Positions 1,147-52,648 of a stretch of DNA of 64,000 nucleotides are shown in pieces. The stretch is taken from IMG/VR virus record IMGVR_UViG_3300027791_000007, positions 84,444 to 148,443 of that record. One strand, written 5' to 3'. This DNA comes from a virus. Numbering within the stretch: position 1 is the stretch's first letter; each line of letters begins with the position of its first letter. The notes beneath the pieces were generated by a model. It saw only the letters and a list, made by a program, of their open reading frames with translations. It did no database searches and was not told where the DNA came from. The translations under genes and the position numbers were made by a program.

Positions 1147-1175
1147 ATCCTATCATAATTAGCGTTGTTTGTCAA
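1147..1175 (-). promoter_or_regulatory. Early-type sigma70 promoter for mazG-uvsX
   Basis: On the minus strand TTGACA (1175-1170), 17-bp spacer, TAGGAT (1152-1147). The -35 overlaps the TGA stop of the Mom-like gene. It matches the other TTGACA-17-TAnnnT promoters in the window. The -10 is weaker than in the other copies. Confidence 0.6.
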
Positions 1176-1978
1176 GTAAAAAATTCACTTAATGTTGCAA
1201 CTCCGTGTTTGTCTGCAACTTTATTTACATTACTAGAGTTGTGGTTTGTTACAGTACCATCTATAAATGGTAGTGTCTTTGTGAGAGTATATTTTTCTTC
1301 GCCTGGTTTCTTTATTTTCCATTGTAAATCAACATCTTTGGGATAATTGATATTCCAATCCATAGTGGACTGTTTAAGATACTTCTTAGCCTTTTTATTT
1401 AGTGGGTAAATATATCTAAATTGTTTACCCCATACTCTACTAAATCCTAATTCACCCATCTTCTTATCACTTGGTCTTGGGCCATACTTAGTATCCATAC
1501 GATTCATTTCTTTTTTCATCTTTCTTTGGATAGTTCTGAAATGTACCTTTTCACCAGTTTCACTCAAATATATATCTGTCCAGATGAACCCACCAAATAA
1601 GAAGTTAGCGGCCTGATAAACATATCCTGGCTTACCAACAATTCCATCTGCCCATGTGTAAAGATATTTTATATTAGGTTTATTTTCTTTCAACCATTTA
1701 ATAGTTAAACTCTGCATTTGTGATTCTGAATTTCTGGGCATCTTATCATCCATACACATCTTACCTATTTCAAAATAATCAGCAGTTGTTAACTCTGGAA
1801 ACATCTTTCTTATTGTTCCCATAGGGTTCGTACCCCAACCCAAAGTTAGAACACCAACCAATTCTTCATCTACATATGTACCAAGATAATGTTTAGTTAG
1901 TTTGGGCATCACAGCACTATAGTGTCGTTCTTGAACGAATAGTGTTGCAACTCTCCAATCTATAGGTTTAATTATCAC
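1172..1978 (-). CDS. Mom-like GNAT-fold protein, putative DNA base modification
   Basis: A 268-residue protein resembling the phage Mu Mom/GNAT-like family. Visible signatures: HYS near residues 19-21, a beta-strand VGVLTLGWG (41-49) as in GNAT folds, NSESQ (83-87), and YTWADGIVGKPGYVYQAANF (107-126), which matches the Mom-type pattern of an aromatic, a D, then GYVYQA-NF. Mu Mom converts adenine to a methylcarbamoyl derivative that blocks restriction; whether this homologue does the same is inference. The C-terminal 80 residues are lysine-rich and unassigned. Neighbours are an HNH nuclease and two glycosyltransferases, which fits a DNA-modification or counter-defence island. It ends inside the mazG promoter. 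It could also be a general N-acyltransferase. Confidence 0.6.
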   Translation of the reverse strand: MIIKPIDWRVATLFVQERHYSAVMPKLTKHYLGTYVDEELVGVLTLGWGTNPMGTIRKMFPELTTADYFEIGKMCMDDKMPRNSESQMQSLTIKWLKENKPNIKYLYTWADGIVGKPGYVYQAANFLFGGFIWTDIYLSETGEKVHFRTIQRKMKKEMNRMDTKYGPRPSDKKMGELGFSRVWGKQFRYIYPLNKKAKKYLKQSTMDWNINYPKDVDLQWKIKKPGEEKYTLTKTLPFIDGTVTNHNSSNVNKVADKHGVATLSEFFT

Positions 1979-5510: not shown

Positions 5511-6623
5511 TCACCTTATTATATCAATCTTATCCATAGTATCTTTATTCCAGACTTCAAGTTCTTTTCTTAACTTGTCCTCTCTAATCATTTTAGTGTA
5601 TCTTTTAGTAGAAAGCTTCTTCCACCACTGTACTACATTTTCAAGTTCAAATCTATCATAGTTTTCTGCTTTTGTCAAGGTATTTGTTTCACCTAGTAAA
5701 ACATTTCTTGCATTTTCATATCCATATGTTGACATATAAAATCTTTTCTGTGTGGTCACTTCTCCTGCTTTATTCATTGCATCTGTAAATAACTGATAGG
5801 CCTTTGAGTCATGTTGTTTTAATGATGCCTTAACCGTTCCCACCATCTTGGTCTGCATCTTTAACTTTCTTGAACTTGCACCTTTATGTATTAGGTCTTC
5901 ACCACCGTTTCTTTCAGTAAACCAATCTCTCATCTCCATATAGATTTCTTCTCCAAGTGTCAATAGAAACTTAGATTGAGTATCACCTTTGTATCTTAGA
6001 TATGGGCGCATACCATCATACATACTACCACCTTTGATATTACCATAAAGACTTGTAGTTTCAAATAGACAGAACTTTGTATTATACTTCTTATTCAACA
6101 TACGTCTAGTTGCATGAGAACAACAAATAGCTGCAAGTAACTTACCACCAAGATAATTATACCCAAATGGTTGTGCAGGCACAATATTAAATCCCATGAT
6201 AGCACGTTTGTTAAAGATATCTAAATCTGGAACACCACCAAGAAAATCATTTCTAGGTTTAGAGTTAATTAGTGGACTACCATAACGTATAAATCCTACA
6301 ATAGTATTTGTAGTTGTTTCCTTAACAACTAGTTTCAAAGTCTTGCCTGGGTTTTCATCTGGACTGAATGATGCAGTCTTTTCTAATAGTGTATCATATA
6401 CCTTGTTTGGTATTTCTACAACTTGAAAGTTCATATCCTCTGGATGCATATCAAAGTCTTGAAACAAATCATCTTCAATTGACATGCCAGGCAGTGGTGA
6501 CGGAATATCTTTAACTCTTTCAATCTTTCTTACACGAAAGTAATCATCAATGCGATTAAAATCTTTGAAGTATTTCATCAATTTTGTAGCAGCGTATATT
6601 GAGTCTTGTCTGTCTAGTATCAT
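5511..6623 (-). CDS. DruA/DUF4338-like protein of unknown function
   Basis: 370 residues. The core (about 95-215) reads like the DUF4338 family of the Druantia defence protein DruA: a beta-hairpin IVGFIRYGSPLIN (108-120), then RNDFLGG, a strand IMGFNIVPAQPFG (142-154), a helix LGGKLLAAICCSHATRRM (158-175) and LFETTSLYGNIKGG (187-199). The same order of elements (substrate loop, strand, long helix with C/S/H, E-T strand) is shared by GNAT-like Mom proteins. In a phage the role could be anti-defence, base modification or an inter-phage exclusion factor. Starts 4 bp inside the gp43 reading frame end (ATGA coupling). Family assignment is tentative. Confidence 0.4.
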   Translation of the reverse strand: MILDRQDSIYAATKLMKYFKDFNRIDDYFRVRKIERVKDIPSPLPGMSIEDDLFQDFDMHPEDMNFQVVEIPNKVYDTLLEKTASFSPDENPGKTLKLVVKETTTNTIVGFIRYGSPLINSKPRNDFLGGVPDLDIFNKRAIMGFNIVPAQPFGYNYLGGKLLAAICCSHATRRMLNKKYNTKFCLFETTSLYGNIKGGSMYDGMRPYLRYKGDTQSKFLLTLGEEIYMEMRDWFTERNGGEDLIHKGASSRKLKMQTKMVGTVKASLKQHDSKAYQLFTDAMNKAGEVTTQKRFYMSTYGYENARNVLLGETNTLTKAENYDRFELENVVQWWKKLSTKRYTKMIREDKLRKELEVWNKDTMDKIDIIR

Positions 6624-9106
6624 AGAAAATCCATTAAGTTACCTTGTTGGCCATATGTGCGATCCACTGTCCATTTAAGTTTGGACACAATAAAGTTTAG
6701 TGGTTCAACAAATGACTTTTCAAATTGTTGTTCATAATCAATCATACTCTGTAATCCAAACTCATCAGGCATTTTTGTAATGAATGAAATAGAACTTGAT
6801 TGGTGAGCATTTGGTATTCGTAAGTGCAAGAATTTAATCTTATCCCCTTCTTGAATGTATGGGTATTTGTTTACTAGTTTCTTTTGTTTGAGAAGATGGT
6901 TGTATAGAATTGCTCCCTTACAATGAATAGGGGCTCCTTTAGCAAATAGGGAACTAGGATCACTCCATTTCGTCAAACCGTTTACACTTCTAGGATATGC
7001 AATCATCTCTGCTGGCATGTTCATAAACTCTTCTCTAAAGTCTCGTATAAACTTATTTAGCATTTTCTCATCACCACTCATGATGATTTTCAAACCTTCT
7101 TTAATTTTGTTTCTACAAGGTTCTGGCGTAGAAGATTTTACTGCTTCAATACCCATAATCTTTAGTTTAGGTTCTTGATAACGAACACCCTCATTATCCC
7201 ACACATTAAGAATATATCGTTTCTTAGCAGTCCATATACCCTTGTCAGCGATGACTTCTCTTGACATCTCCATCTTCTGTTGGTATGCTTTCATGTAAGT
7301 AGCGAGTTCTTCATAACATGAACTGATATATGGTTCTATCTTATCCTTTGCAATGCTGTCTAGAAAATCAATTGGACTAGATGGATTAAACTTTTCTACC
7401 AAAGAACCGAATGTAACATAGATGGAATCTGTATCAGAAGCAACCACATAATCTTGATTATCAGTTTTGAGTAAATTGTTCATATAACTATTAATCTTGT
7501 TTTCAATCCAACGAATAGATAATTGTCCAGAAGTTGTAACAGCCTCTGCCATTGCAAGGGAGTAGTATCTGAAATACTGATTACCGATAGCACCATAAGC
7601 ACTGTTCAATGCAATCTTTCTTGCCATCTGAATATTATCATACTTAGAAATCTTTTTAAGTAGTTTTGGTTCTTTGGTATCTTCATATTCTTGTTTTGCC
7701 TGTAACATCTTCTTCTTGAATACGACACGATCATTGTACATGTTTTCCATCAACTCTGGAAGAAAACCTTTTGTATCTGTTCTGAACAATGCACCGTTTG
7801 GTGTCATAGTGGTATCTTTGAAAATAGATGTATCAACTTCCTTGTTTAGAAGTTTGTCCACCTTCATACCTTTTACCGTATCCAGAGATTTTAATGTTTC
7901 TGGGGAAATATTATATTGCATCATTAAGTGTGGATACAAAGAGTTCAAGTCAAAAGACATAATCCATTTATGTTCACCGACTATAGGGTCTTTGACATAT
8001 GCACCCTCAAACTTCTCTGCCTTTTCTGAATGACGTTTCTGTGGAATTACAATATTCTTTTTCTTTAGATAATTGTAAATCAGAACATCCCAATATTTAA
8101 CCGAACCAAGAACATCCATGTAATTAACTTTGGCTTCATATGCCATAGTCAAACACAATTCAATAAGTCTCATCTTATCTTCAATACGATCAACTAGTTC
8201 CACATCAAGAATGTTATAGTCAATAAAAGATTGAAAGTCTTTTGTATACCACTCACTGAAAGTTTCATATGGATTTGTATCTTTCTTTTGTCCAAGTTCT
8301 ACATATGCGATATGAGTAAGTGCATATGACTCTTGACTTGTGTATGTAAACTTGTGATATAAGTCCAAGTAATCCAAGTGAGCAACACCTCTAATATCGT
8401 AGAGTTGATGATTCCTACCATTTCTGAAAACTTCTTTATCTTGAACCATACGCCATGGTGATAATCTTTTTAGTTCATCCTCACCAAACAAGTTCTTCAT
8501 ACGATTACATAGATAAGGAATATCAAAAAATTCTGTATTCCAACCAGTGATAATATCTGGTGGGCTGTTTTCCCAAAAGATAAGAAACTCTTTAAGTAAA
8601 TGTATTTCACTCTCACATTCAATGTAAGTTACATCGTCACGACTATTAGTATATTTACCAACACCCCAAACAATAATTTGTTTGTTAGAATGGTTCTTTA
8701 AAGTAATTGATAGAAAAGGTTCTGCAGCCTCTTGTGGATTAGGAAACCCATTCTCACATTTAACCTCAATGTCAATAGTGTATATTAGAATCTGATCTAA
8801 ATCCCAATTGACATCATTAGGATATTCTTCTGAAAGATAAGTATATGGATATTGGTTTAACCCCAATACCAACGATTTTTGATTCTCGTATGATTTTTGC
8901 CACTCTTTCGCATCTTTGATATTATCAAATTTGATTGGGGCAGCATTCTTGCCAGTAAGAGTTTTGAAACCGCTTACCTTTTCGCAGGGCGTGTACAAAG
9001 TTGGTTGGTATTTAACCTTACGAACTTGTCGTTTGCCGTTTACAACTTCTCTTAGAAAAAGTTGGTTTCCCCACTGTAAAATATTTGTGTAAAAGTTTAT
9101 CATCAT
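6620..9106 (-). CDS. 43: DNA polymerase gp43 (family B)
   Basis: Replicative polymerase with proofreading exonuclease, 828 residues in one uninterrupted frame. Exonuclease motifs: DIE (112-114), GWNTEFFD (188-195) and YNILD (297-301). Polymerase motifs: FDLNSLYP (385-392), KIALNSAYG (497-505) and SDTDS (557-561). It acts with the clamp gp45, loader gp44/62 and probably RegA-controlled translation. Translation can begin at either of two consecutive ATG codons (9106 or 9103). The upstream promoter -10 ends only 5 bp before the first ATG, which predicts a leaderless or nearly leaderless transcript. Confidence 0.98.
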   Translation of the reverse strand: MMINFYTNILQWGNQLFLREVVNGKRQVRKVKYQPTLYTPCEKVSGFKTLTGKNAAPIKFDNIKDAKEWQKSYENQKSLVLGLNQYPYTYLSEEYPNDVNWDLDQILIYTIDIEVKCENGFPNPQEAAEPFLSITLKNHSNKQIIVWGVGKYTNSRDDVTYIECESEIHLLKEFLIFWENSPPDIITGWNTEFFDIPYLCNRMKNLFGEDELKRLSPWRMVQDKEVFRNGRNHQLYDIRGVAHLDYLDLYHKFTYTSQESYALTHIAYVELGQKKDTNPYETFSEWYTKDFQSFIDYNILDVELVDRIEDKMRLIELCLTMAYEAKVNYMDVLGSVKYWDVLIYNYLKKKNIVIPQKRHSEKAEKFEGAYVKDPIVGEHKWIMSFDLNSLYPHLMMQYNISPETLKSLDTVKGMKVDKLLNKEVDTSIFKDTTMTPNGALFRTDTKGFLPELMENMYNDRVVFKKKMLQAKQEYEDTKEPKLLKKISKYDNIQMARKIALNSAYGAIGNQYFRYYSLAMAEAVTTSGQLSIRWIENKINSYMNNLLKTDNQDYVVASDTDSIYVTFGSLVEKFNPSSPIDFLDSIAKDKIEPYISSCYEELATYMKAYQQKMEMSREVIADKGIWTAKKRYILNVWDNEGVRYQEPKLKIMGIEAVKSSTPEPCRNKIKEGLKIIMSGDEKMLNKFIRDFREEFMNMPAEMIAYPRSVNGLTKWSDPSSLFAKGAPIHCKGAILYNHLLKQKKLVNKYPYIQEGDKIKFLHLRIPNAHQSSSISFITKMPDEFGLQSMIDYEQQFEKSFVEPLNFIVSKLKWTVDRTYGQQGNLMDFL

Positions 9107-9145: not shown

Positions 9146-9394
9146 TTATTCAAATAATTCTATTTGTTTTTTCTTGTTAACTGGTTTCATTGGGAAATAA
9201 ATATTAATCATTTCTAGTCTATCATGTGCGGCAGATAGTTTATCTAGTTCAGCCATAACTGCTTCTGTTACATCTGAATGCTCTCCAATTCCTGCCGGCA
9301 TTGTTTGATACACTGCAATATTTGCCTTGTGAACTTCAATTTGTCCTTCTGCATGTTTTTTTGCAGCAAAAATAATTTGTTCGCCTACTTTCAT
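9146..9394 (-). CDS. Conserved-looking small helical protein, function unknown
   Basis: 82 residues, mostly amphipathic helix, with two histidine-containing segments and a lysine-rich C-terminus (KPVNKKKQIELFE). The ending QIELFE resembles a clamp-interaction tail (Q-x-x-L-F type), which would suit a gene wedged between gp43 and the RimK-like gene in the replication cluster; this is inference. Good Shine-Dalgarno (AAAGGAG) and ATGA overlap with the upstream RimK-like gene support that it is translated. Confidence 0.6.
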   Translation of the reverse strand: MKVGEQIIFAAKKHAEGQIEVHKANIAVYQTMPAGIGEHSDVTEAVMAELDKLSAAHDRLEMINIYFPMKPVNKKKQIELFE

Positions 9395-10863
9395 TTTGTA
9401 CTCCTTTTATTGAGTTTTTGGGGTAAATCGTCCTCATCTGTTTTATCGCCTCTTTCAATCCAATCGGATAGAACGAATCTCCTATTTGGATTGACACTTA
9501 CTTGAAACAAAGTCATAATATCTCTGTTAGCAAGAAAAGTACTTCTTGAATCTTTTTCAGTAAGTCCTATTGGTACATCTAAATATTTTCTATTATTAAA
9601 TGTTATGTTTACGTTAACAATAGGTCTTTCATCTATTTTTCCAACATGTTCTGGTTTGGAAACACCTTGTAAGGCACTTGTAAATTTCTTTCCGTCTTTT
9701 TCCCACTTAACTGTTCTGCCGTTAATATCTACTTTGTCAACAACAAACATTGATGCATGTGTTCCATTTCCAGTATCGAACTTTGCTCTTAGTGGGCCGT
9801 AACCATCTATTTCAATTCTTTCTACATATCCAGATTCAGTAGGAAATGAATGTCTACGATTATTTGGTATCATAATAAACTCTAATAACTTTTCTACAAT
9901 CTTAGATGGATTTGCATCACCAATATATGCATTGTTGTCTGATTCTGTATCAGTAGCATCATACAATGCAAAATTAGAACCAATACCAGCAGAACCATTA
10001 CACTCTAAAACGTAAACATCTCCACTTACAATAGCATGGTCAACACCAACAACATATGCACCAACTGAACGAGATGCCCTTAGAATCACTTCTCTTTCTC
10101 TATCATTCAATTTATATGGTTCTGTTGTAGCACCTCTATGTCTATTAGACCTAAAATCTTTCTTTGCAGAAATCCTCTTTGTTGATGCTAGTATTTTACC
10201 ACCAACTACAATTGTTCTTATATCACTATCGAATTTAAAATATTCTTGAATTAAAAGTTCAGCACCAAATTTCCATAATGACTGAACATTAGAAACTAAA
10301 CTCTCGTAATCTTTAGCAATAGAAACACCAATACCTTGTGTACCAGTAATTGTTTTAATGATAACTGGAAACTTACCACCAATTCTTTTTAATCCATCTT
10401 CTAGAGACTTTTCATTTGAAACTATTGATGTTCTAGGAGTCGGTATACTGTTTCTTTCAAAAGATAAGAACGCTGACATTTTATTATCACATGTCAACAT
10501 ACCTTCTCTATTGTTAATCATAAACGAACCAGACTTCTCAAAAGATGTTAGTAGTGCGAGTCCGATTTCATCTTCTAAAACTCCAGCACGAACAAAACAC
10601 ACAGTCTTTCTAGTGTTAAATTCTACATCATTATCGTTACCATCAAAATTAGATACTGTTATTATTCCAGTTTCTAAATCATTAGCAGCGATCCATGCAT
10701 CTCTAACATTAATGATGTGACATTTAATATTACGTTTTTCGCAAGCTTTCTGTAAAAGATTGCTTACTAGTTCTGGTTTTTTAGATTTAACTTTGGTTAG
10801 AATTGCTACTTCAATATCAGTGTCAACTTTGGCCTCAGTAAAAAAATCGGCAAATTTTTCCAT
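9391..10863 (-). CDS. RimK-like ATP-grasp ligase fused to RimB-like aspartic protease domain
   Basis: 490 residues in two parts. Residues 1-335 are ATP-grasp of the RimK type (which adds glutamates to the ribosomal protein S6 C-terminus): DNKMSAFLSFERNSIPTPRT (126-145), VIIKTITGTQGIGV (167-180), the lid region, and the metal-binding strand VLECNGSAGIG (285-295). Residues about 346-475 match the retropepsin-like ATP-dependent Zn protease/RimB family: VERIEIDGYGPLRAKFDTGNGTHA (split positions 348-370, catalytic-type DTG at 363-365), RPIV (413-416) and NRDIM. In bacteria RimK and RimB act together on S6. Phage targeting of the host ribosome is inference. Coupled by ATGA to the next gene. Confidence 0.75.
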   Translation of the reverse strand: MEKFADFFTEAKVDTDIEVAILTKVKSKKPELVSNLLQKACEKRNIKCHIINVRDAWIAANDLETGIITVSNFDGNDNDVEFNTRKTVCFVRAGVLEDEIGLALLTSFEKSGSFMINNREGMLTCDNKMSAFLSFERNSIPTPRTSIVSNEKSLEDGLKRIGGKFPVIIKTITGTQGIGVSIAKDYESLVSNVQSLWKFGAELLIQEYFKFDSDIRTIVVGGKILASTKRISAKKDFRSNRHRGATTEPYKLNDREREVILRASRSVGAYVVGVDHAIVSGDVYVLECNGSAGIGSNFALYDATDTESDNNAYIGDANPSKIVEKLLEFIMIPNNRRHSFPTESGYVERIEIDGYGPLRAKFDTGNGTHASMFVVDKVDINGRTVKWEKDGKKFTSALQGVSKPEHVGKIDERPIVNVNITFNNRKYLDVPIGLTEKDSRSTFLANRDIMTLFQVSVNPNRRFVLSDWIERGDKTDEDDLPQKLNKRSTK

Positions 10864-10880
10864 ACACCATCTCCAAGGCT

Positions 10881-11303
10881 TTATATTTCTTTAGTTTCTT
10901 CTTTTTTCTTTCCAATATTATATTTTGTCTCTAAAACCCACTCATTCTTTTCTTTGAATGAAATGATTTTGATTTGACTCAATGGTGTTATTGGTTCAGC
11001 CTCACCCTTTAGTGTTACCAGACCCCAATCACTTAATAGTTTACCGATTGTATTACGTCTTGCAACATCATTCTCACTTAAATTAGTTTCCTTACCATCT
11101 AGGGCAAAGAGTTCTTTAAAGTGAACTAAGTAATATTTACCTTGTTTATGTAGTATGTGGCAAGATTGATAGAGTTTCCTATCTTTTCTACTTGCAACAC
11201 CAATTCTGGATAATGTCTCTCTCACTTTTAGAAAATCATCCGGCTCTTTTAAGACGATTTCTAACATATCGTCTTGCTTCCAATTCAGTTTAACCTCTTC
11301 CAT
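10881..11303 (-). CDS. regA: RegA translational repressor
   Basis: RNA-binding repressor that in T4 blocks initiation of many early mRNAs, including clamp-loader genes. The body matches T4 RegA closely: EPDDFLKVRETLSRIG, LYQSCHILHKQGKYYLVHFKE and DVARRNTIGKLLSDWG. An upstream in-frame GTG (11312) exists, but the ATG at 11303 has the better spacing to AGGTGG and is chosen. A further ATG at 11267 would give the length of the T4 protein, so the N-terminal extension of about 12 residues is uncertain. Overlaps the end of gp62 by 14 bp. Confidence 0.93.
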   Translation of the reverse strand: MEEVKLNWKQDDMLEIVLKEPDDFLKVRETLSRIGVASRKDRKLYQSCHILHKQGKYYLVHFKELFALDGKETNLSENDVARRNTIGKLLSDWGLVTLKGEAEPITPLSQIKIISFKEKNEWVLETKYNIGKKKEETKEI

Positions 11304-11682
11304 TTTTTCCACCTTTATTCAAACTATCTTTAATAGTCTTTATCTGTTCATCATTAAGTATACTTAGAGCGGACTTTGCCTTTTCATTACTATATCCATA
11401 ATACTCTTTTACATACTCTAGATCTTTAAGTTTACTTGCTTTCAACCAAGGATTAAATCGTTTCCTTGGTCTTAGACTATTTAGTAAAAAGTCAAACTGC
11501 AACTTATTGTCTAGGTGATGTTGACGGTTCATCTCATTTGCGAGATGTATGGTTTCTTGGTCTAATAAACATTTATTTATAATGAATGGTGCATACTTCT
11601 TTTCCCAAGTTTCGTCACCACTATCCATAAGACGTTCTTTAGTATAGTTTATAGCATTTAGGTATTCTTTCAATTCATACAT
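11290..11682 (-). CDS. 62: Clamp loader small subunit gp62
   Basis: 130 residues, shorter than T4 gp62 (187) but typical of the short version in marine T4-like phages. The signature FDFLLNSLRPRKRFNPW is present in the middle. With gp44 it loads the gp45 clamp in an ATP-dependent manner. Sits between the oxygenase and RegA in the usual 45-44-62-regA order. The C-terminus is lysine/glycine-rich. Confidence 0.85.
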   Translation of the reverse strand: MYELKEYLNAINYTKERLMDSGDETWEKKYAPFIINKCLLDQETIHLANEMNRQHHLDNKLQFDFLLNSLRPRKRFNPWLKASKLKDLEYVKEYYGYSNEKAKSALSILNDEQIKTIKDSLNKGGKNGRG

Positions 11683-11684
11683 GA

Positions 11685-12236
11685 CTAATCTCTATAATCA
11701 TCTAGACGGTTTGGATTAGTTATTTCTCCACCCATGTCCATTGTTTTAAATACAATACAAGTCCTTAGTTTATGGCACATCCTTGAAACAGGCAAAGCAC
11801 CATGTGTAGTTTTCGCTGGGAAACAAATTAATCTATTACCCACATATTCTGCAACTTCATTACCCACGATTGTTCCACCCATGAAATCTTTTTCCCAATC
11901 CATTCTAGGATAATATATCAAGGTATAATCACCGTCATCTTTGTGTGTTAGTGGTTCTATACCATGAGTGTGGGCATTTAGGTAAACTCTTACCCATTCT
12001 AGTTTCAATTCAATCTTTCGCATGGCTGCATCCCAGATAGGTAAAAGCCAATCCATATTTGCTGAAAGTACCTCATCACGATTATGCATACCAGCAACAT
12101 GCCAGTGTTTACTTGCACCACCTTTTCTAGAATTATAATCATACTTCCATGAAAGAGAATTTACTTCTTGGTCTATAAGTTCAGCGATATGTGGTTCAAC
12201 CAGATTATCTACAATATTTAATTTATCATATCTCAT
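11685..12236 (-). CDS. 2OG-Fe(II) oxygenase inserted between gp44 and gp62
   Basis: 183 residues from the ATG at 12236, which overlaps the gp44 stop as ATGA; a longer frame to 12272 would run into gp44 and is less likely. The double-stranded beta-helix features are a metal HxD-type motif HKDDGDYTLIYYP (about residues 100-112), FMGGTIVG, and the distal His/Arg pair FPAKTTHGALPVS...RTCIVF. This matches prolyl-hydroxylase-like 2OG dioxygenases. Substrate unknown. Its position within the clamp-loader operon is an insertion relative to T4. Confidence 0.75.
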   Translation of the reverse strand: MRYDKLNIVDNLVEPHIAELIDQEVNSLSWKYDYNSRKGGASKHWHVAGMHNRDEVLSANMDWLLPIWDAAMRKIELKLEWVRVYLNAHTHGIEPLTHKDDGDYTLIYYPRMDWEKDFMGGTIVGNEVAEYVGNRLICFPAKTTHGALPVSRMCHKLRTCIVFKTMDMGGEITNPNRLDDYRD

Positions 12237-13168
12237 TTGAATTTCACAGCCCCCATAATCTCTGTTAGACAAGCCAACAAGTTAATCTCTTGATCTGCAA
12301 CAAAGGCAGACTTATATTGATAATCACCTAGAATAACCACAGCATGAGGAATAGTACTAGGATTAAGATAATCGTATAGCGCATCGTAAACCCTACGATA
12401 AATCCTAATAGGGTCATTATCGAGATTAGCAACAATCCATTTTCTGACATTTGTAAATTCCTTTCCTTTTAGTGATGACATCAAGTCACCAATATTCTTT
12501 TCAGATATATTGACTAGAACACCAGCATCAATTTGACCAGTAACAGAGTATCTTTGAAGTTCATTTATCACTCTACGCCAGTCTGGAAAGTGTTTGTTGA
12601 TTAATTCAGCAACAGCCTTAGGTTCATTTTTAATATCTTCTATTACTAGAATCTTTAGGATTCTTTCAAAGAACTGTTCTGCAAGTTTTACTTTGTCACT
12701 ATTATTAATAGAGAAATCAATACCAGAACACCTTGAGTGTAACGGTTCAATTAATCTATTCTTATAATTACAAGTAAGAATAAATCCACAGTTATTGTGA
12801 AACTCTTCCATAAACCCACGAAGGGCAGGTTGAGTTGATTGTGGATTTAGATAATCAGCCTCATCTAGAATGACGTATTTTCTACCACCCTCTAGACTTA
12901 CAGTTGAAGCAAAGTTTTTGATTTTTGTTCTAAGAACATCAATACCAGATTCTTCCGAACCATTTATCAACATATAAGTAGCACCGATTTCATTTAACAT
13001 CGCTTTTGCAACTGTAGTTTTACCCACACCAGCAGTACCAGATAATATTAGATTTGGTATTGATTTGTTCTTAACAAATTCTGTGAATGTATCTTGTAAA
13101 CCTTTTGGTAAGATACATTCAGCAATAGTCGTTGGGCGGTATTTCTCCACCCACAAGAAGTTTTCCAT
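12233..13168 (-). CDS. 44: Clamp loader large subunit gp44 (AAA+ ATPase)
   Basis: 311 residues. Walker A GTAGVGKTT (about 44-52), Walker B YVILDEADYLN, sensor-type TCNYKNRLIEPLHSRC with the SRC arginine finger motif, then the helical collar. Opens and loads the gp45 clamp together with gp62. Begins WVEKYRP, the usual RFC-box start. Followed by the oxygenase with a 4-bp overlap. Confidence 0.95.
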   Translation of the reverse strand: MENFLWVEKYRPTTIAECILPKGLQDTFTEFVKNKSIPNLILSGTAGVGKTTVAKAMLNEIGATYMLINGSEESGIDVLRTKIKNFASTVSLEGGRKYVILDEADYLNPQSTQPALRGFMEEFHNNCGFILTCNYKNRLIEPLHSRCSGIDFSINNSDKVKLAEQFFERILKILVIEDIKNEPKAVAELINKHFPDWRRVINELQRYSVTGQIDAGVLVNISEKNIGDLMSSLKGKEFTNVRKWIVANLDNDPIRIYRRVYDALYDYLNPSTIPHAVVILGDYQYKSAFVADQEINLLACLTEIMGAVKFK

Positions 13169-14132: not shown

Positions 14133-15101
14133 CTAAGACCTCCGTAGTGTTTTAATATATTTTGATTGATCTTCTGGACTAGTGATACCCAATTTCTTTA
14201 ATGTAAGTTTATCAACTACATTAATATTTGCAGAAAATGTTCTACGTTCACCTTCACCAAAAAATGGCATTACGGAATGTCTTAACCAATTAGGGAATAT
14301 ATACATAGCCCCAACTTCTGGTTTAACATATTCGTCTGTAGCAGGTCTAAGAATCTTAGTATCTGCCCTTCCATTATTACCCCATGAGAAATAAGTGAAA
14401 CCATCAACACCACCAGAATTATTATTCAAGTTGACTTGATCTCCACTAACCTTTTTCTCAATCGCCTCTGGAACTTTTAGATACAGAATACACGACAACC
14501 CATAAGGTGTAGCAACACCGTGGTCGTGTAAAGGATTATAATCTCCAGAGTAACTATGAACTGACCATGCTTCAAATGTATCTACTTCTGCATCAACTTC
14601 ATGTCCATTCTTTAAATAAGTTCTTGCACACTGGTCGATAATAGTTTTTACTTGTGATGGTATAGAAAGAGTCTCTGGTGTTTCTGGTTCATGAGTAATT
14701 GGAAAGACAAGTTGTGCTGATTTATTATCTTGTTTGATTTGTCCTACAAGTCCACCGGCCAAACTATTGTTTGCAGTTGTATTACCAGCAGTTTCACCAA
14801 ATGATTCGTCTTGTGTTACAATAGTTTCATCAATGTATCTATTAATTTCAGTTATAGCATCAACTGGAATTTCTACTCGCATCATATGTAGTGCAAGTTT
14901 AGTTTTCATAGAAATTCTTAAACCAGAATTTTTCTGTGTATGTTCTTCATCAGCATCAGCCATAGCCTGTCCATCTTCAATTGCTTTTTCAGCATCTGTT
15001 TTAGGAATTGGTTCGTTTGAAGTCCAATGATTTTTGTCTGTTTTTGCGACACCACCGTCTTTGAATTGGTCTGGTGCAACATCAAATGTTTTTAAACCCA
15101 T
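14133..15101 (-). CDS. 2OG-Fe(II) oxygenase (TIGR02466-like)
   Basis: 322 residues. The catalytic half shows AWSVHSYSGDYNPLHDHGVATPYGLSCILYLKVP and, 90 residues later, GAMYIFPNWLRHSVMPFFGEGERRTFSANI, the HxH...H...R arrangement of the TIGR02466/2OG-FeII_Oxy_5 family. The first 100 residues (charged, with an M-K-T-K-L helix) have no recognised domain. Substrate unknown. Follows a strong hairpin at 15129-15153 and heads the run into the clamp genes. Confidence 0.8.
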   Translation of the reverse strand: MGLKTFDVAPDQFKDGGVAKTDKNHWTSNEPIPKTDAEKAIEDGQAMADADEEHTQKNSGLRISMKTKLALHMMRVEIPVDAITEINRYIDETIVTQDESFGETAGNTTANNSLAGGLVGQIKQDNKSAQLVFPITHEPETPETLSIPSQVKTIIDQCARTYLKNGHEVDAEVDTFEAWSVHSYSGDYNPLHDHGVATPYGLSCILYLKVPEAIEKKVSGDQVNLNNNSGGVDGFTYFSWGNNGRADTKILRPATDEYVKPEVGAMYIFPNWLRHSVMPFFGEGERRTFSANINVVDKLTLKKLGITSPEDQSKYIKTLRRS

Positions 15102-15531: not shown

Positions 15532-15604
15532 TGGAGCGGGCAGATGGAATTGAACCACCTTCTTCAATTTGGAAATTGACATAATACCTTTATACGATGC
15601 CCGC
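15532..15604 (-). tRNA. tRNA-Gly (UCC) with short anticodon loop
   Basis: Acceptor stem GCGGGCA pairs with TGCCCGC, followed by T and an encoded CCA. A D-arm with GG, and a T-arm GGTGG-TTCAATT-CCATC are intact. The anticodon arm is TCAAT-TTCCAA-ATTGA: a 5-bp stem closing only 6 nt (or a 4-bp stem closing 8 nt), one base fewer than the expected 7-nt loop, giving a 73-nt gene. The overall sequence is close to bacterial tRNA-Gly(UCC). The missing base may be real or a homopolymer assembly error. It sits just 3' of CobS on the same strand. Confidence 0.85.
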
Positions 15605-15611
15605 ATTTTTC

Positions 15612-16790
15612 CTAGAATGATGGTTCTTCTTCATCATCACTATCCATATCAGATAACATATTATCCAATTCAGTTTCGTTGTTAGTAGAATCAATCTCGA
15701 TTCCACTGTCAATTTTGGTGTACAAGTCCATGAAAGAGTCTTTGGTCTCTTCATCGAATCTTGCAACACAAAGTTCGATAGACTTCATCTTGTCATTGAA
15801 AATGGCAAATGCCTTTACAATGTGGTCTAACCTTCTGGTCGAAATCACTTCATCGACTCCACCGTCAAAGAAAGTCTTTCTGATAACCTCGGCCCACTTG
15901 ACAAGATTATCTGCAAACACTTCATCAACAGTTCCATACTTTTTCATAGAACCGATAACAATCTTCTTTTCGGTTTTTGTGGTAGCGTATGGTTGTTCAA
16001 TAGTGATTGCAAATCTTTCGAGGAAGGCCTCATTCAATACGTTAGTACCAATAAATCTACCGTCATCAGAACCTTTACCTTTAGTGTTAGCAGTCGCCAT
16101 CACATTAAAACCAGTTTTAGGAGTAATCCACTTGTTTACTTTTTTCAAGTAAACACCTTTACCCTCAAGAACTGGTTGGAGTGCAAGTAACTTGTTTGAA
16201 CCCAAATCACACTCATCAAGCAAAAGAGTACAACCTCTTTGCATGGCCTCAATGACTGGCCCAGGAACAAACTTAGTTTCTCCATTCACCAATCTGAAAC
16301 CACCAAGTAAATCATCTTCATCAGTTTCGATTGTGATGTTCACTCTGATCAATTCTTTTTTCATCTCAGCGTGAATCTGTTCAATCATCAATGTTTTACC
16401 ATTACCAGATAATCCAGTAACAAATATTGGATAGAACAAACCAGACTTTACAATCTGTTTGATTGTAGTGTAATGACCCCAAGGTACGAAACCTACAAAT
16501 GTCTCTGGAACTAAATTTTGTTTTTCCATATTTGTTGCAACTAAATTCATAACAGTATTCTCCACTGGAGCAGTAGTATTAACTTGAACTGTCTCAGCAA
16601 CATACAAATCTTCATTAGGAAGTTTGAACTGATTATAACCAGTTTTACACTGACCTAGAAACCAACCAGCAAGTGGTAGTTCTAGTTTTTCACAAACCTC
16701 TTTTACTTGAGTCTTGTTTAGAATAGAACCAGCACCGAATTGTTCAGATGCAGAATCTACAAACTTCTGTTTTCTTGGACTTAAATACAT
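15612..16790 (-). CDS. cobS: CobS-like AAA+ ATPase (MoxR/cobaltochelatase type)
   Basis: 392 residues. Walker A TGLSGNGKT (125-133), Walker B LLLDECD (189-195) and sensor motif MATANTKG are clear; the N-terminal 90 residues form a separate small helical domain. CobS is the ATPase subunit of aerobic cobaltochelatase and is widespread in marine T4-like phages. It is followed upstream/downstream by a CobT-like VWA gene, forming an ATPase-VWA pair. No CobN is seen here, so a role as a general AAA-VWA chaperone is as likely as cobalt insertion. The C-terminus is very acidic. Confidence 0.85.
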   Translation of the reverse strand: MYLSPRKQKFVDSASEQFGAGSILNKTQVKEVCEKLELPLAGWFLGQCKTGYNQFKLPNEDLYVAETVQVNTTAPVENTVMNLVATNMEKQNLVPETFVGFVPWGHYTTIKQIVKSGLFYPIFVTGLSGNGKTLMIEQIHAEMKKELIRVNITIETDEDDLLGGFRLVNGETKFVPGPVIEAMQRGCTLLLDECDLGSNKLLALQPVLEGKGVYLKKVNKWITPKTGFNVMATANTKGKGSDDGRFIGTNVLNEAFLERFAITIEQPYATTKTEKKIVIGSMKKYGTVDEVFADNLVKWAEVIRKTFFDGGVDEVISTRRLDHIVKAFAIFNDKMKSIELCVARFDEETKDSFMDLYTKIDSGIEIDSTNNETELDNMLSDMDSDDEEEPSF

Positions 16791-31135: not shown

Positions 31136-31780
31136 TTACAACATTTTGAGGAACTTAGCAAATTCTAATGCTTGATTTGCAGCTTTCCCCTTCTCAAGTC
31201 TTTGTTTCATCTCCACCAAATGTGGTTCAAGATAACTTCCATTATCCCACACCCACTCTTTTCCTTCCATGATACCTTCCACGAAAGCGGATGGAGCCGA
31301 TGGATCAGCAACGATATCAGCCGCAGTTGCGAGCATGAAATCTTTGTTTACATAGTTTGCACCACCTTTTGATACTAAACTACCCATACCTCTTGATGAA
31401 ACACCTAATGTAGCACCCTCATCCATAAGACTTTTTACAATCTTACCCATAGGGGTGTCCATTATTTTTGCCTCTCCGATAAAATTTTTACCTTCGGGCA
31501 CTAATGATGTTATCAAATGAGATGCTCTTTCGAGATTTACAGTCGGCCCTTCTGGGTGACCTAATTCTCCAAAAGCTCTCTTTTTCGCTATGAAGTTTTT
31601 ATTATACTTACCTACTTCATTAGTCAATACTTCCATAGGATAAACACGGCCATTTCGGTTCTTTATGTCCGCCTGCATGAAAACACCACGAATTTTATAG
31701 TTCTTCTTACCATCAGCAGCTTCTTCTGCGATAAAATGAACATCTTGGATATCTTCTGTAATTAATTTTACTAAGCGCAT
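31136..31780 (-). CDS. 21: Prohead maturation protease gp21
   Basis: 214 residues. Herpes-protease-like serine protease: GELGHPEG carries the catalytic His, and TLGVSSRGMGSL the catalytic Ser. NGRVYPMEVL is the conserved N-terminal strand. Cleaves gp22, gp23 and core proteins during head maturation. Late promoter at 31812. Confidence 0.94.
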   Translation of the reverse strand: MRLVKLITEDIQDVHFIAEEAADGKKNYKIRGVFMQADIKNRNGRVYPMEVLTNEVGKYNKNFIAKKRAFGELGHPEGPTVNLERASHLITSLVPEGKNFIGEAKIMDTPMGKIVKSLMDEGATLGVSSRGMGSLVSKGGANYVNKDFMLATAADIVADPSAPSAFVEGIMEGKEWVWDNGSYLEPHLVEMKQRLEKGKAANQALEFAKFLKML

Positions 31781-50422: not shown

Positions 50423-51113
50423 AATCAATCCATTCGTGAGGTTTGTTTGAAGAATGTGTAAAGTGAACAAATTTTATATCTTCGTGAAACTCTCCCCCCA
50501 TGTATGCAAATTCATTTCCAGTTAGTTCTGTATATTTCTCTGTCATTTTTATCATAAACAATTTTTCTGATTGGTATTCTTGCAACGGTTTTGTGCTTGC
50601 AACCCATCTAATAAACCATGCTTTTGGTAAAAGTTTTAGTTTTAATTTTTCCTTAACACTATCCTCAACAAAGTATTGTTCTCCGTTTACAGGCCCACTT
50701 GTAACTCCATTATCAATGTAGTGTCTCTGCCATTTACGAATATCAGACATAAACTTATCATAGATGTATCTACAATCTTTTGGATAGTATTTAAAGAACC
50801 CACCATTAATTTTATAGTTCTCTGAATTAGTATCTCTCCACCAACCAGGCATTGCAAGAAACTCACCTTTCTCTATAGGATAGTCAAACACTTTCTTATA
50901 ATCATTTGTAAGTAATATGTCAATATCCATAACACAGATAGGTTCATCAATGTCGAGTTGCATACCCCACATTTTATTCCACTGTAAAGTAACCTTATCG
51001 TGATACGGTTGTCGTATCCAGATAAATTCATGTTCTGGTAATTTATTCTCTAGATATGTTTCATACTCTGGGCCGTACTTTTCACCTATTCGTACACATA
51101 ATATTTTTGCCAT
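50406..51113 (-). CDS. Glycosyltransferase-like protein (GT-A, DxD)
   Basis: 235 residues. ILCVRIGEKYGPEYETYLENKLPEHEF, ICVMDIDILLTNDYK with a DxD metal site, YKINGGFFKY and a final VHFTHSSNKPHEW. A paralogue at 55479-56291 shares the opening (LCVRWGDKY--TYVKKL) and DIDIL block. Such proteins occur in marine phage surface or small-molecule clusters. Sugar and acceptor unknown. Confidence 0.65.
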   Translation of the reverse strand: MAKILCVRIGEKYGPEYETYLENKLPEHEFIWIRQPYHDKVTLQWNKMWGMQLDIDEPICVMDIDILLTNDYKKVFDYPIEKGEFLAMPGWWRDTNSENYKINGGFFKYYPKDCRYIYDKFMSDIRKWQRHYIDNGVTSGPVNGEQYFVEDSVKEKLKLKLLPKAWFIRWVASTKPLQEYQSEKLFMIKMTEKYTELTGNEFAYMGGEFHEDIKFVHFTHSSNKPHEWIDYEIFK

Positions 51114-52648
51114 TATTTTACCTTTATAGTTTCACCTTTTGGATTTTTTATATATCCATCTTTACCCATTAATACTGGTATTTTATTTGGATATGCCCCC
51201 TTAAAAATATATCCCTTTGTTGAATCTTGTAGAAAATTCTGTAGGAGATTATATCTTGTCATGATTTGAGGTAGTCTATAAATTATATGAGTTTTCACAA
51301 ATGAAAATATGTTACTAGCGTTCCACAACACTTTTTTACCATCTGTATATTTTGAAAACTCACTAAAATGATCCTCTAGTAAATCAAACTTTATATAATC
51401 TATTCTACAATTATTTCTTGCCCATTCTAAATTTTCAAGTTGCTGTTCTAAAGTTCCATTCCTTATTGTAAGTTCTCCCTCAGCACCGTATAATTGTTCA
51501 CCTTGTTCGTTAGGATTTTTAATAGTTTTCCTTGGCACTAGACCATCTTTTGGTGGTAATTGAGATATTATCTTCGGCCGAGTGCCAATGTGTTCAATAG
51601 CAGAAGGATCTATTTGTGTTTTTGACTTCCAGTTTTTTACCCACCATTCAAATTCATCAGCAGAAGTAATAAGTTCAACTATTTGTTTCTTTAGTTCTAT
51701 GTGCATATCTGTTATATCATAGAATACTATATGTTTAATGTCAAGTTCTTTTGCTAAAAATTCTGTGATGAGACCAGCAGTTGGTGATACAATAACATCA
51801 AACCCACCCAACTTTCGTTTATATTCTTTAATGTCTCCTATAAATGAGGACATAGTTTCTGTATTTACTGGATAGTATTTGTCACTATTTCTCACATCGT
51901 TAAAAGATGTATATCTTTGAGGTATTCCAGTTTTTTTTGTCACTGGTTCGTTAGGATATCTATTATAAGAAAACGCCTTTATCTTTCTTTCTTCTTCTGA
52001 AAAGTTTCTAATTATTGGATAGTCTTTCGGTTTTAACCAATGTGGTGTATAGTCATCATGAAAGTTTGTATCTGCTCTTTCGTAGTCTGTAAATCTCAAT
52101 TTAAATATGTTAGGCGAACCAAGTTTGTTCCACCATTCTCTATTAAGAACTATATCTTGGTCATGTAAGTTTGCTGGTTTATCTGGTTTTGCAATTATAT
52201 GTCCTTTAACCCAATAGTCATTTTCATTTCTCTCCCATCTTGCAATGTCCTCAAAGAAATATGACATTGGTGTTTTATCTGCATGTCCAGCAAAGTTCAT
52301 TCCACATCTAAGTATTCTAATATATTTAATATGACTAGGTAAATTTAATATCGTGTCATGAACTTCATCTTTCCAACAACATACAGTAAAAGCACCACTA
52401 CCACATCCAGTAAGTCCACCACCAGTATTAAACCAAGTGGTGTGAGCATTCTCATGAATATTCCAATCCCATTTAATATTTTTAGGAAGATGAACTATGT
52501 GACAAAAGATATTTCCCCCACCCCTATCTTTATCACCAAAAACTATTTCTGGATATTTTTTATGCCTGAATCCACTAACATACCGTTTTTGAATGCTGAT
52601 CTCATTTACAAATTTACAAAAATCATCGTAACTTTCAAAGTCATTCAT
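51113..52648 (-). CDS. Large protein of unknown function in the 48-56 kb cluster
   Basis: 511 residues. Residues about 50-130 are rich in Cys, Gly and Trp (NTGGGLTGCGSGAFTVCCW). The second half has Rossmann-like strands (VIVSPTAGLITEFLAKELDIKHIVFYDI) and a C-terminal KVLWNASNIFSF, features of methyltransferase-like folds without a clear SAM motif. Not recognised further. Coupled to its neighbours by short overlaps. Confidence 0.5.
   Translation of the reverse strand: MNDFESYDDFCKFVNEISIQKRYVSGFRHKKYPEIVFGDKDRGGGNIFCHIVHLPKNIKWDWNIHENAHTTWFNTGGGLTGCGSGAFTVCCWKDEVHDTILNLPSHIKYIRILRCGMNFAGHADKTPMSYFFEDIARWERNENDYWVKGHIIAKPDKPANLHDQDIVLNREWWNKLGSPNIFKLRFTDYERADTNFHDDYTPHWLKPKDYPIIRNFSEEERKIKAFSYNRYPNEPVTKKTGIPQRYTSFNDVRNSDKYYPVNTETMSSFIGDIKEYKRKLGGFDVIVSPTAGLITEFLAKELDIKHIVFYDITDMHIELKKQIVELITSADEFEWWVKNWKSKTQIDPSAIEHIGTRPKIISQLPPKDGLVPRKTIKNPNEQGEQLYGAEGELTIRNGTLEQQLENLEWARNNCRIDYIKFDLLEDHFSEFSKYTDGKKVLWNASNIFSFVKTHIIYRLPQIMTRYNLLQNFLQDSTKGYIFKGAYPNKIPVLMGKDGYIKNPKGETIKVK

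What the first reader, a model, noticed from the sequence alone, without database searches (positions are those of the whole stretch)
9391..10863. RimK-like ligase fused to RimB-like protease domain
RimK adds glutamates to ribosomal protein S6; RimB trims them. Here both are on one phage polypeptide next to the polymerase. It could set the glutamylation of host ribosomes (or another protein) and so favour phage translation. ATP-grasp and DTG motifs are directly visible; target is inference. DTGN replaces the usual DTGA.
Basis: partly seen in the sequence, partly recalled or inferred. Interest (0 to 1): 0.72.

Follow-up and report, generated by a model that had tools for sequence, protein, structure and literature searches.

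The report
Phage glutamate ligase-protease with capsid-targeting tag
A marine virus of bacteria carries one protein that probably both adds and trims chains of glutamate, a chemistry bacteria use to tune their ribosomes, and its first ten residues look like the label that phage T4 uses to pack proteins into its head and inject them into the host.

Summary
The 490-aa ORF at 9391-10863 (-) is a RimK-family alpha-L-glutamate ligase followed by a RimB/RloA-type retropepsin domain, between regA and PolB of a T4-like marine phage. PF05618 misses this copy, but two homologues pass its cut-off, a family profile hits the solved RloA/DUF785 structures, and the predicted fold matches them. Catalytic and most poly-glutamate-contact residues are kept; DTGN marks the phage lineage. 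The fusion and its possible use on ribosomes were published in 2008 (Monier et al.); a bacterial RimBK hybrid (opposite domain order) is an active protease.

What I did not find in print is the N-terminus. Residues 1-10 match T4's capsid-targeting sequence (CTS) at the positions that matter for targeting (4, 7) and, less exactly, cleavage (8, 10). The exact pattern is at 1 of 1344 in-frame ATGs of this phage record (this gene) and 3 of 1326 in T4 (ipII, ipIII, 61.1; it misses ipI and alt). All 35 non-redundant marine sequences keep the motif in an otherwise variable stretch, often two residues further in. A Yersinia phage homologue, without the motif, is listed in purified particles.

Best reading: an internal head protein injected with the DNA that edits poly-glutamate tails. 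Chemistry well supported, packaging fairly, target (S6) inference.

The parts
9391..10863 (-). RimK-RimB fusion gene, 490 aa
   Evidence: families; fold
10871..10874 (-). GGAG Shine-Dalgarno-like site, 7 nt before the ATG
   Evidence: read
10834..10863 (-). Residues 1-10: T4-type capsid-targeting-sequence-like N-terminus; predicted cut after Glu10
   Evidence: window numbering: F4 and E10 in 35 of 35 rows, F/Y at 7 and I/L/F/V at 8 in 35 of 35; exact pattern at 1 of 1344 ATGs in G000; T4 IPII/IPIII for comparison
9853..10815 (-). Residues 17-337: RimK pre-ATP-grasp and ATP-grasp fold
   Evidence: 7qys Z 27.9, 288 residues, rmsd 2.7
9982..10488 (-). PF08443 RimK ATP-grasp match, residues 126-294
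10129..10158 (-). Residues 236-245, RimK loop DFRSNRHRGA beside the ATP/glutamate site
9466..9831 (-). Residues 345-466: RimB/RloA-type retropepsin domain
9766..9777 (-). Residues 363-366 DTGN, active-site Asp363
9781..9783 (-). Lys361, equivalent of RloA K46 (poly-Glu contact)
9625..9627 (-). Arg413, equivalent of RloA R114 (poly-Glu contact)
9553..9555 (-). Lys437, equivalent of RloA R137 (Lys in 22, Arg in 13 of 35 rows)
10881..11312 (-). regA translational repressor, immediate upstream neighbour
   Evidence: PF01818 2.5e-43; synteny
9146..9394 (-). 82-aa phrog_1811 gene; its ATG overlaps the fusion's stop codon by 4 nt
6620..9106 (-). Family B DNA polymerase (T4 gp43 homologue)
   Evidence: synteny
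31136..31780 (-). Head maturation protease (T4 gp21-like), the enzyme expected to cut the tag
   Evidence: phrog_207 4.2e-77

Best explanation
A bifunctional poly-glutamate enzyme that is packed into the phage head and delivered with the DNA. Step 1 (motif shown, function inferred): the first ten residues act as a T4-type capsid-targeting sequence that draws the protein into the prohead core, where the gp21-like protease cuts after Glu10. Step 2 (inferred, by analogy with T4 IPs and Alt): the mature enzyme is ejected into the cell with the genome; copies made after infection may act too, since the gene lies in the replisome operon behind regA. Step 3 (domains and residues shown, activity inferred): the ATP-grasp half joins alpha-L-glutamates to a carboxyl end and the dimerised retropepsin half cuts poly-glutamate runs, so the two set a tail length. 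Step 4 (inference only): the acceptor is the C-terminus of host ribosomal protein S6 (bS6), where tail length affects S1/mRNA handling, on the 30S platform where the phage's own bS21 would also sit.
For: Ligase half: PF08443 2.8e-35; TIGR00768 over its cut-off; RimK is the top fold match; K170, D275, E287 and N289 and the equivalents of RimK glutamate contacts R64/R189/N262 (PMC10092738, section read), here R92/R216/N289, are each 35 of 35. Protease half; Asp363 35 of 35; RloA poly-Glu contacts K46, R114 and R137 (PMC12239564, passages) are K 35 of 35, R 35 of 35 and K or R 35 of 35. No run of 5 or more Glu is encoded in 182 predicted genes of this phage record, so the protease's substrate would have to be made by a ligase or lie in the host. 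Packaging: T4 mutagenesis put CTS targeting mainly at residues 4 and 7 and processing at 8 and 10, with cleavage after L/I-X-E (PMC9026906, passages); the family has, in window numbering, F4, F/Y7, I/L/F/V8 and E10 in 35 of 35 non-redundant rows, with 11-15 variable, although residues 1-14 have pLDDT under 50. Exact pattern M..[FY]..[FY][ILVMF].E: 1 of 1344 in-frame ATGs in G000 (this gene); 3 of 1326 in T4 (ipII, ipIII, 61.1). 169 of 173 scored loci have the motif within 30 residues of the start; 3 of the other 4 are cut off by a contig end. The phage has a gp21-like protease. YerA41 g112 'Ribosomal protein modification protein' is starred as LC-MS/MS-identified in particles (PMC7354516 Table 3); gene order suggests it is the fusion homologue YerA41_066, annotated 'structural protein'. 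bS21 is encoded in G000, Mosig and Melnitz (3 of 4 records searched).
Against: Residue 8 of the window protein is Phe, not the L/I of T4's cleavage motif (I or L in 31 of 35 rows). Spacing from the start is loose: the first motif residue is at 4, as in T4 IPII/IPIII, in 17 of 169 loci and at 6 in 115, and 26 of the 169 have no Met at the start the script chose. The pattern misses two of T4's four known tagged proteins: IPI keeps F4 and F7 but has no Glu10, Alt differs. The motif was defined after seeing this protein and T4's, so the counts measure specificity and are not a blind test. The Yersinia homologues, the only ones with particle MS that I found, lack the motif, and that particle list also holds replication proteins, so carry-over is possible. 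The gene is in a replication operon, not a head cluster. S6 as target: equivalog cut-off not reached; the MptN (tetrahydromethanopterin ligase) model scores as well as the S6 model on this protein and better on Mosig and GN1; RimK contact S68 is not kept (S in 1 of 35), R8 is Lys in 22 and Asp in 11 of 35. I found no measured activity for any phage member.
Confidence: 0.45

Rival explanations
1. Same enzyme, not packaged: it is made after infection from the replisome operon and edits host or phage proteins then. The N-terminal motif is a docking peptide for something else (clamp, polymerase, ribosome).
For: Locked position between regA and PolB: regA is the nearest recognised upstream gene in 149 of 150 loci with over 700 nt upstream, PolB lies within 3 kb downstream in 129 of 134 with over 1500 nt. 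Loose spacing of the motif from the start. Monier et al. 2008 suggested action on translation during infection.
Against: The motif matches the T4 CTS at its targeting positions and Glu10 in the window protein and is otherwise rare; a YerA41 gene product that gene order identifies as the homologue is reported in particles.
Confidence: 0.36
2. Poly-glutamate chemistry on another acceptor: a phage protein, a cofactor, or free poly-glutamate. S6 is not involved. (Independent of whether the enzyme is packaged.)
For: S6-ligase equivalog not reached while the MptN model scores about equally or better; RimK can make free poly-alpha-glutamate in vitro (PMC11957791, passages); four of 182 predicted G000 proteins have acidic or EE-ending tails, one of them the 392-aa ATPase at 15612-16790.
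Against: The fused protease keeps residues that in RloA bind poly-Glu peptides; RimB's characterised substrate is glutamylated S6.
Confidence: 0.45
3. The retropepsin half is catalytically dead and only regulates the ligase, as RimB stimulates RimK; DTGN marks the loss.
For: DTGN in 175 of 176 phage rows against D(T/S)GA in the six cellular sequences seen here; Melnitz RimK does without the domain.
Against: Asp, Thr and Gly are invariant and the poly-Glu-contact positions are K, R and K/R in 35 of 35 rows, although the clades are only about 30% identical, which is unlike a decayed active site.
Confidence: 0.12

Closest known systems
Marine phage RimK(-DUF785) of Monier et al. 2008 (PMC2530865; passages read)
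   Same: RimK next to regA in T4-like marine contigs, some with C-terminal PF05618: apparently the same gene in the same place
   Different: No residue-level study of the protease domain and no N-terminus analysis in the passages read; packaging not mentioned there
Bacterial RimBK hybrid, Desulfotalea psychrophila DP2392 (PMC11957791; passages read)
   Same: RimB and RimK domains on one chain; protease activity on glutamylated S6 shown
   Different: Protease first, ligase second. Two bacterial hybrids read here have that order too, with DTGA and DSGA (Thioclava, Aureibacter). Monier et al. name Halobacteria with the phage-like order
Pseudomonas RimK/RimB pair and RloA peptidases (PMC10092738, PMC12239564; section and passages)
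   Same: Fold, catalytic Asp, most poly-Glu-contact residues, RimK FRSN loop
   Different: Separate genes; RloA is secreted; DTGA in RloA and RloA2
T4 internal proteins IPII/IPIII, IPI and Alt (PMC9026906, PMC5694885, PMC9958956; passages)
   Same: N-terminal tag with aromatic 4 and 7 (IPI-III), hydrophobic 8 and Glu10 (IPII, IPIII); gp21-type protease present
   Different: T4's tagged cargo is anti-restriction (IPI), of unsettled role (IPII, IPIII), or an ADP-ribosyltransferase (Alt); none is a glutamate ligase-protease

Membership tests
RimK-family alpha-L-glutamate ligase (TIGR00768 / PF08443) | Score over the curated cut-off | tested here: met
   150.5 bits against 143.4; PF08443 122.1 against 21
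RimK-family alpha-L-glutamate ligase | ATP-grasp catalytic residues and glutamate contacts R64, R189, N262 | tested here: met
   35 of 35 rows each; contacts. S68 not kept, R8 only partly, S14 not scored
Ribosomal protein S6--L-glutamate ligase (NF007764 equivalog) | Score over the equivalog cut-off | tested here: not met
   104.2 bits against 331
Ribosomal protein S6--L-glutamate ligase | Adds Glu to the S6 C-terminus | not testable with these tools
   needs biochemistry
RimB / PF05618 retropepsin-like peptidase | PF05618 over cut-off in the window protein | tested here: not met
   no hit at E<=10; homologues Mosig and GN1 pass; 20 of 36 family members match at E<=0.1
RimB / PF05618 retropepsin-like peptidase | Profile similarity and fold shared with solved members | tested here: met
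RimB / PF05618 retropepsin-like peptidase | Catalytic DTG and poly-Glu-contact basic residues | tested here: met
   the fourth motif residue is N instead of A; the Yersinia sequence lacks the Lys
T4-type internal head protein with CTS | Targeting positions 4 and 7 of the N-terminal peptide | tested here: met
   F4, F7 in the window protein; in most relatives the motif starts at residue 6
T4-type internal head protein with CTS | gp21 cleavage motif L/I-X-E | tested here: not met
   window copy has F-T-E; I or L in 31 of 35 rows
T4-type internal head protein with CTS | gp21-type prohead protease encoded by the phage | tested here: met
T4-type internal head protein with CTS | Present and cleaved in mature virions | not testable with these tools
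   only indirect: YerA41 homologue in particles, which lacks the motif

The most novel reading that the evidence does not exclude
Widespread marine T4-like phages inject a ready-made enzyme that both writes and erases poly-glutamate tails, carried in the head by a T4-type capsid-targeting peptide, so that host ribosomes (or another target) are re-tuned from the first minute of infection, as T4 Alt does with RNA polymerase.
Probability: 0.37. Interest if true: 0.78.

Novelty: new variant of a known kind. Interest (0 to 1): 0.6.

Why it matters
If the tag works, the delivery route of T4's Alt and internal proteins extends to post-translational glutamylation, and to phages of abundant ocean bacteria (Mosig's host is Pelagibacter). 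It would make two open questions testable at once: what S6 glutamylation does, and what marine T4-like phages inject. The enzyme is widespread: a scan with the window protein found 163 relatives in viral contigs and one with Mosig's 221; the two sets were not checked for overlap.

Tried and rejected
PF05618 directly on the window protein: no hit, resolved by homologues, family profile and fold. Looking for the solved structure that Monier et al. mention (3BY7, the grey hypothetical gene of their Figure 5) with the 82-aa neighbour: no hit. The 82-aa gene as a partner or substrate: it belongs to phrog_1811 and has relatives in 150 phage records, 130 of them named as Synechococcus, Prochlorococcus or cyanophage, so it is not specific to the fusion. 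A genome-encoded poly-Glu substrate in the phage: none among 182 predicted genes. Cellular ancestor with the ligase first, by genome scan: 15 loci, 14 matching only within the ATP-grasp part and one (L181) a phage-type full fusion in an archaeal MAG contig. PF05618 in six of those genomes: 0 of 6. Relatives of the Yersinia phage protein in viral contigs: none. RloA2 against phage records by tblastn: no match. Two cyanophage RimKs (S-CAM8, S-RIM32) lack the N-terminal motif. Host assignment: not done; the nearest isolate by PolB is Methylophilales phage Melnitz at 62%. ArgX ties with RimK in the fold comparison, so the fold alone does not pick the acceptor. Literature: the search RimK + capsid + phage listed all 12 papers that hold the three words; by title two concern phages or marine viruses, and I read their RimK passages (PMC2530865; PMC7412058, one mention of a 'RimK-related lysine biosynthesis protein'). 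RimK + phage + auxiliary metabolic listed one paper (passage read). One search listed 25 of 73 papers, none, and the two capsid-targeting searches listed 15 of 118 and 10 of 31. None of the listings or passages joins RimK with capsid targeting.

I lowered the best explanation from 0.5 to 0.45 and the novel case from 0.4 to 0.37, and raised the unpackaged rival from 0.33 to 0.36.

Full report
What is there. The ORF at 9391-10863 on the minus strand is 490 codons long, starts with ATG and has a GGAG seven bases upstream. The window is 64 kb of a 148,443-base virus record. Upstream lie regA, gp62, gp44 and gp45 homologues; a gene between 62 and 44 has a below-cut-off oxygenase match in Pfam and is in phrog_274, labelled DNA endonuclease V. 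Downstream an 82-aa phrog_1811 gene overlaps the fusion's stop codon by four bases, followed by PolB. The nearest isolate by PolB is Methylophilales phage Melnitz (62%).

Ligase half. PF08443 matches at 2.8e-35 and NCBIfam's RimK-family model TIGR00768 passes its cut-off. An AlphaFold2 model (mean pLDDT 77, 35 sequences) aligns best with RimK of P. syringae (Z 27.9, 288 residues, rmsd 2.7); ArgX is tied at 27.2. K170, D275, E287 and N289, which I read as the ATP and Mg positions from the RimK alignment and general knowledge of ATP-grasp enzymes, are 35 of 35 in a set of sequences under 90% identical (alignment A2: the window protein plus 34 relatives; 24 rows of the window's clade and 11 of Mosig's). 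Five loci cut off at a contig end were left out of A2 by hand, and the Yersinia homologue is not in it. Of the poly-Glu contacts seen in P. aeruginosa RimK, R64, R189 and N262 correspond, by counting along the alignments, to R92, R216 and N289 and are 35 of 35; S7 is T or S; R8 is Lys in 22 and Asp in 11; S68 is not kept (the S7 and R8 positions were placed by eye, S14 was not scored). The RimK loop FRSN: R238, S239, N240 are 35 of 35, the following H and R 24 of 35. The S6-specific equivalog model is not reached (104 against 331 bits), and the MptN model scores 103 on this protein and 144 on Mosig and GN1. So: a RimK-family alpha-L-glutamate ligase, acceptor open.

Protease half. PF05618 misses the window protein but passes its cut-off in Mosig and GN1 and matches 20 of 36 C-terminal domains at E<=0.1. 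A profile of the 36 hits RloA2, RloA and 2pma. The domain folded alone (mean pLDDT 70.7) has these three entries as its first six Foldseek chains, then HIV-1 protease; VIA gives Z 12.3, 12.0 and 11.5, against 8.3 for the next entry. RloA K46, R92, R114 and R137 contact poly-Glu in a published model, R92 is not conserved in RimB, and R114A and R137A had the strongest effects. The equivalents of K46, R114 and R137, by the alignment and by counting, are K361, R413 and K437: K 35/35, R 35/35 and K22/R13; the Yersinia sequence lacks the Lys. DTGN is in 175 of 176 phage rows, the remaining one being Melnitz RimK without the domain; the six cellular sequences seen have D(T/S)GA. The active site therefore looks used, with a lineage-specific fourth residue.

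Distribution. In 149 of 150 loci with over 700 bases upstream the nearest of the queried genes is regA; in 129 of 134 with over 1500 bases downstream PolB lies within 3 kb. The Yersinia phage is the upstream exception and one of the five downstream. Melnitz has RimK of 349 aa without the protease.

The N-terminus. Residues 1-14 have pLDDT under 50, yet in window numbering F4 and E10 are invariant, 7 is F/Y and 8 is I (24), L (7), F (2) or V (2) in 35 rows, while 11-15 vary and carry gaps. T4 IPII and IPIII begin with ten residues of the same pattern followed by Ala, read from the T4 record. Mutagenesis summarised in PMC9026906 (passages) places CTS targeting mainly at 4 and 7, processing at 8 and 10, and cleavage after L/I-X-E. 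The exact-spacing pattern occurs at 1 of 1344 in-frame ATGs (50 or more codons open) in G000, which is this gene; at 3 of 1326 in T4 (ipII, ipIII, 61.1); and at 0 of 1019 in Mosig. It misses T4 IPI, which has F4 and F7 but no Glu10, and Alt. With a free offset and the first start of each predicted gene, G000 has 2 hits, Mosig 1 and T4 3, against 0.24, 0.38 and 0.72 expected from internal positions; allowing later in-frame starts adds one each in Mosig and T4. Of 173 loci scored (176 rows less two second fetches and Melnitz), 169 have the motif within 30 residues of the start the script chose, 3 begin at a contig end, and the Yersinia phage lacks it. The first motif residue is at 6 in 115 of the 169 and at 4 in 17; 26 do not begin with Met and would need GTG, TTG or another start. 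T4 propeptides of 10-20 residues are described (PMC5694885, passages), so the longer spacing is not excluded. Melnitz RimK also has the motif. Many loci are near-copies, which is why the 35-row count matters more. The pattern was set after seeing the protein and T4's, so this is a measure of specificity.

Particle evidence. In YerA41 (PMC7354516; Table 3 and passages) g112 'Ribosomal protein modification protein' is marked as LC-MS/MS-identified in particles and as middle-expressed. It follows the ribonucleotide reductase genes g109 and g110, as the fusion homologue YerA41_066, annotated 'structural protein', follows YerA41_063 and _064. The identification by gene order is mine. That list of 63 proteins also contains polymerases and helicases, which the authors think are injected.

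How it would work. T4 record notes say Alt is in the capsid and enters with the DNA. By analogy the fusion is cut by the gp21-like protease, ejected, and sets poly-Glu tail length. RimB needs about six contiguous Glu to cut and no run of five or more is encoded in 182 predicted genes here, so a ligase would have to make the substrate unless it lies in the host. S6 and S18 tails contact S1, and loss of RimK shifts translation in P. fluorescens (PMC7343187, passages). Three of four records examined, G000, Mosig and Melnitz, encode bS21; that bS21 sits near S6, S18 and S1 on the 30S platform is recalled. The S6 step is inference.

Known or new. Phage rimK beside regA, some with C-terminal DUF785, and its possible use on ribosomes were published in 2008; the bacterial B-K hybrid and its protease activity in 2025. 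The tag and the injection reading appear in none of the listings or passages seen in searches, whose limits are told under Tried and rejected. I file the finding as a new variant of a known kind.

Noticed in passing
Phage T4 NC_000866 18966-19130 (gene 61.1; L210): The 54-aa gp61.1 has the same tag-like N-terminus as IPII and IPIII: possibly an unrecognised internal head protein.
   Followed up: no
window 51113-52648 (-): A 511-aa protein with the same motif starting at residue 10; no PHROG match at E<=0.001.
   Followed up: partly
L181 (CALCXY010000050.1): A contig filed as a Woesearchaeota MAG holds a phage-type fusion at 47% identity over 4-474; probably a mis-binned phage contig.
   Followed up: no
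G000:C1:56651-56809 (-), outside the window; L180: The phage record encodes ribosomal protein bS21; so do Mosig and Melnitz.
   Followed up: partly
L086 82-1131 (Methylophilales phage Melnitz): RimK without protease domain, still with the tag-like N-terminus, between the translational regulator gene and PolB.
   Followed up: partly
window 5511-6623 (-): 370-aa phrog_19197 protein with a weak, below-cut-off Pfam match to DruA of the Druantia defence system.
   Followed up: no
window 1172-1978 (-): Mom-like DNA modification protein, phrog_1384 5.4e-41.
   Followed up: no
window 15532-15604 (-): ARAGORN reports a tRNA with an odd two-base anticodon.
   Followed up: no
window 11685-12272 and 14133-15101 (-): The second is a 2OG-Fe(II) oxygenase-family gene; the first has only a below-cut-off oxygenase match and is in phrog_274 (DNA endonuclease V), and sits between gp62 and gp44, where Mosig has a putative Fe2OG dioxygenase.
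   Followed up: no
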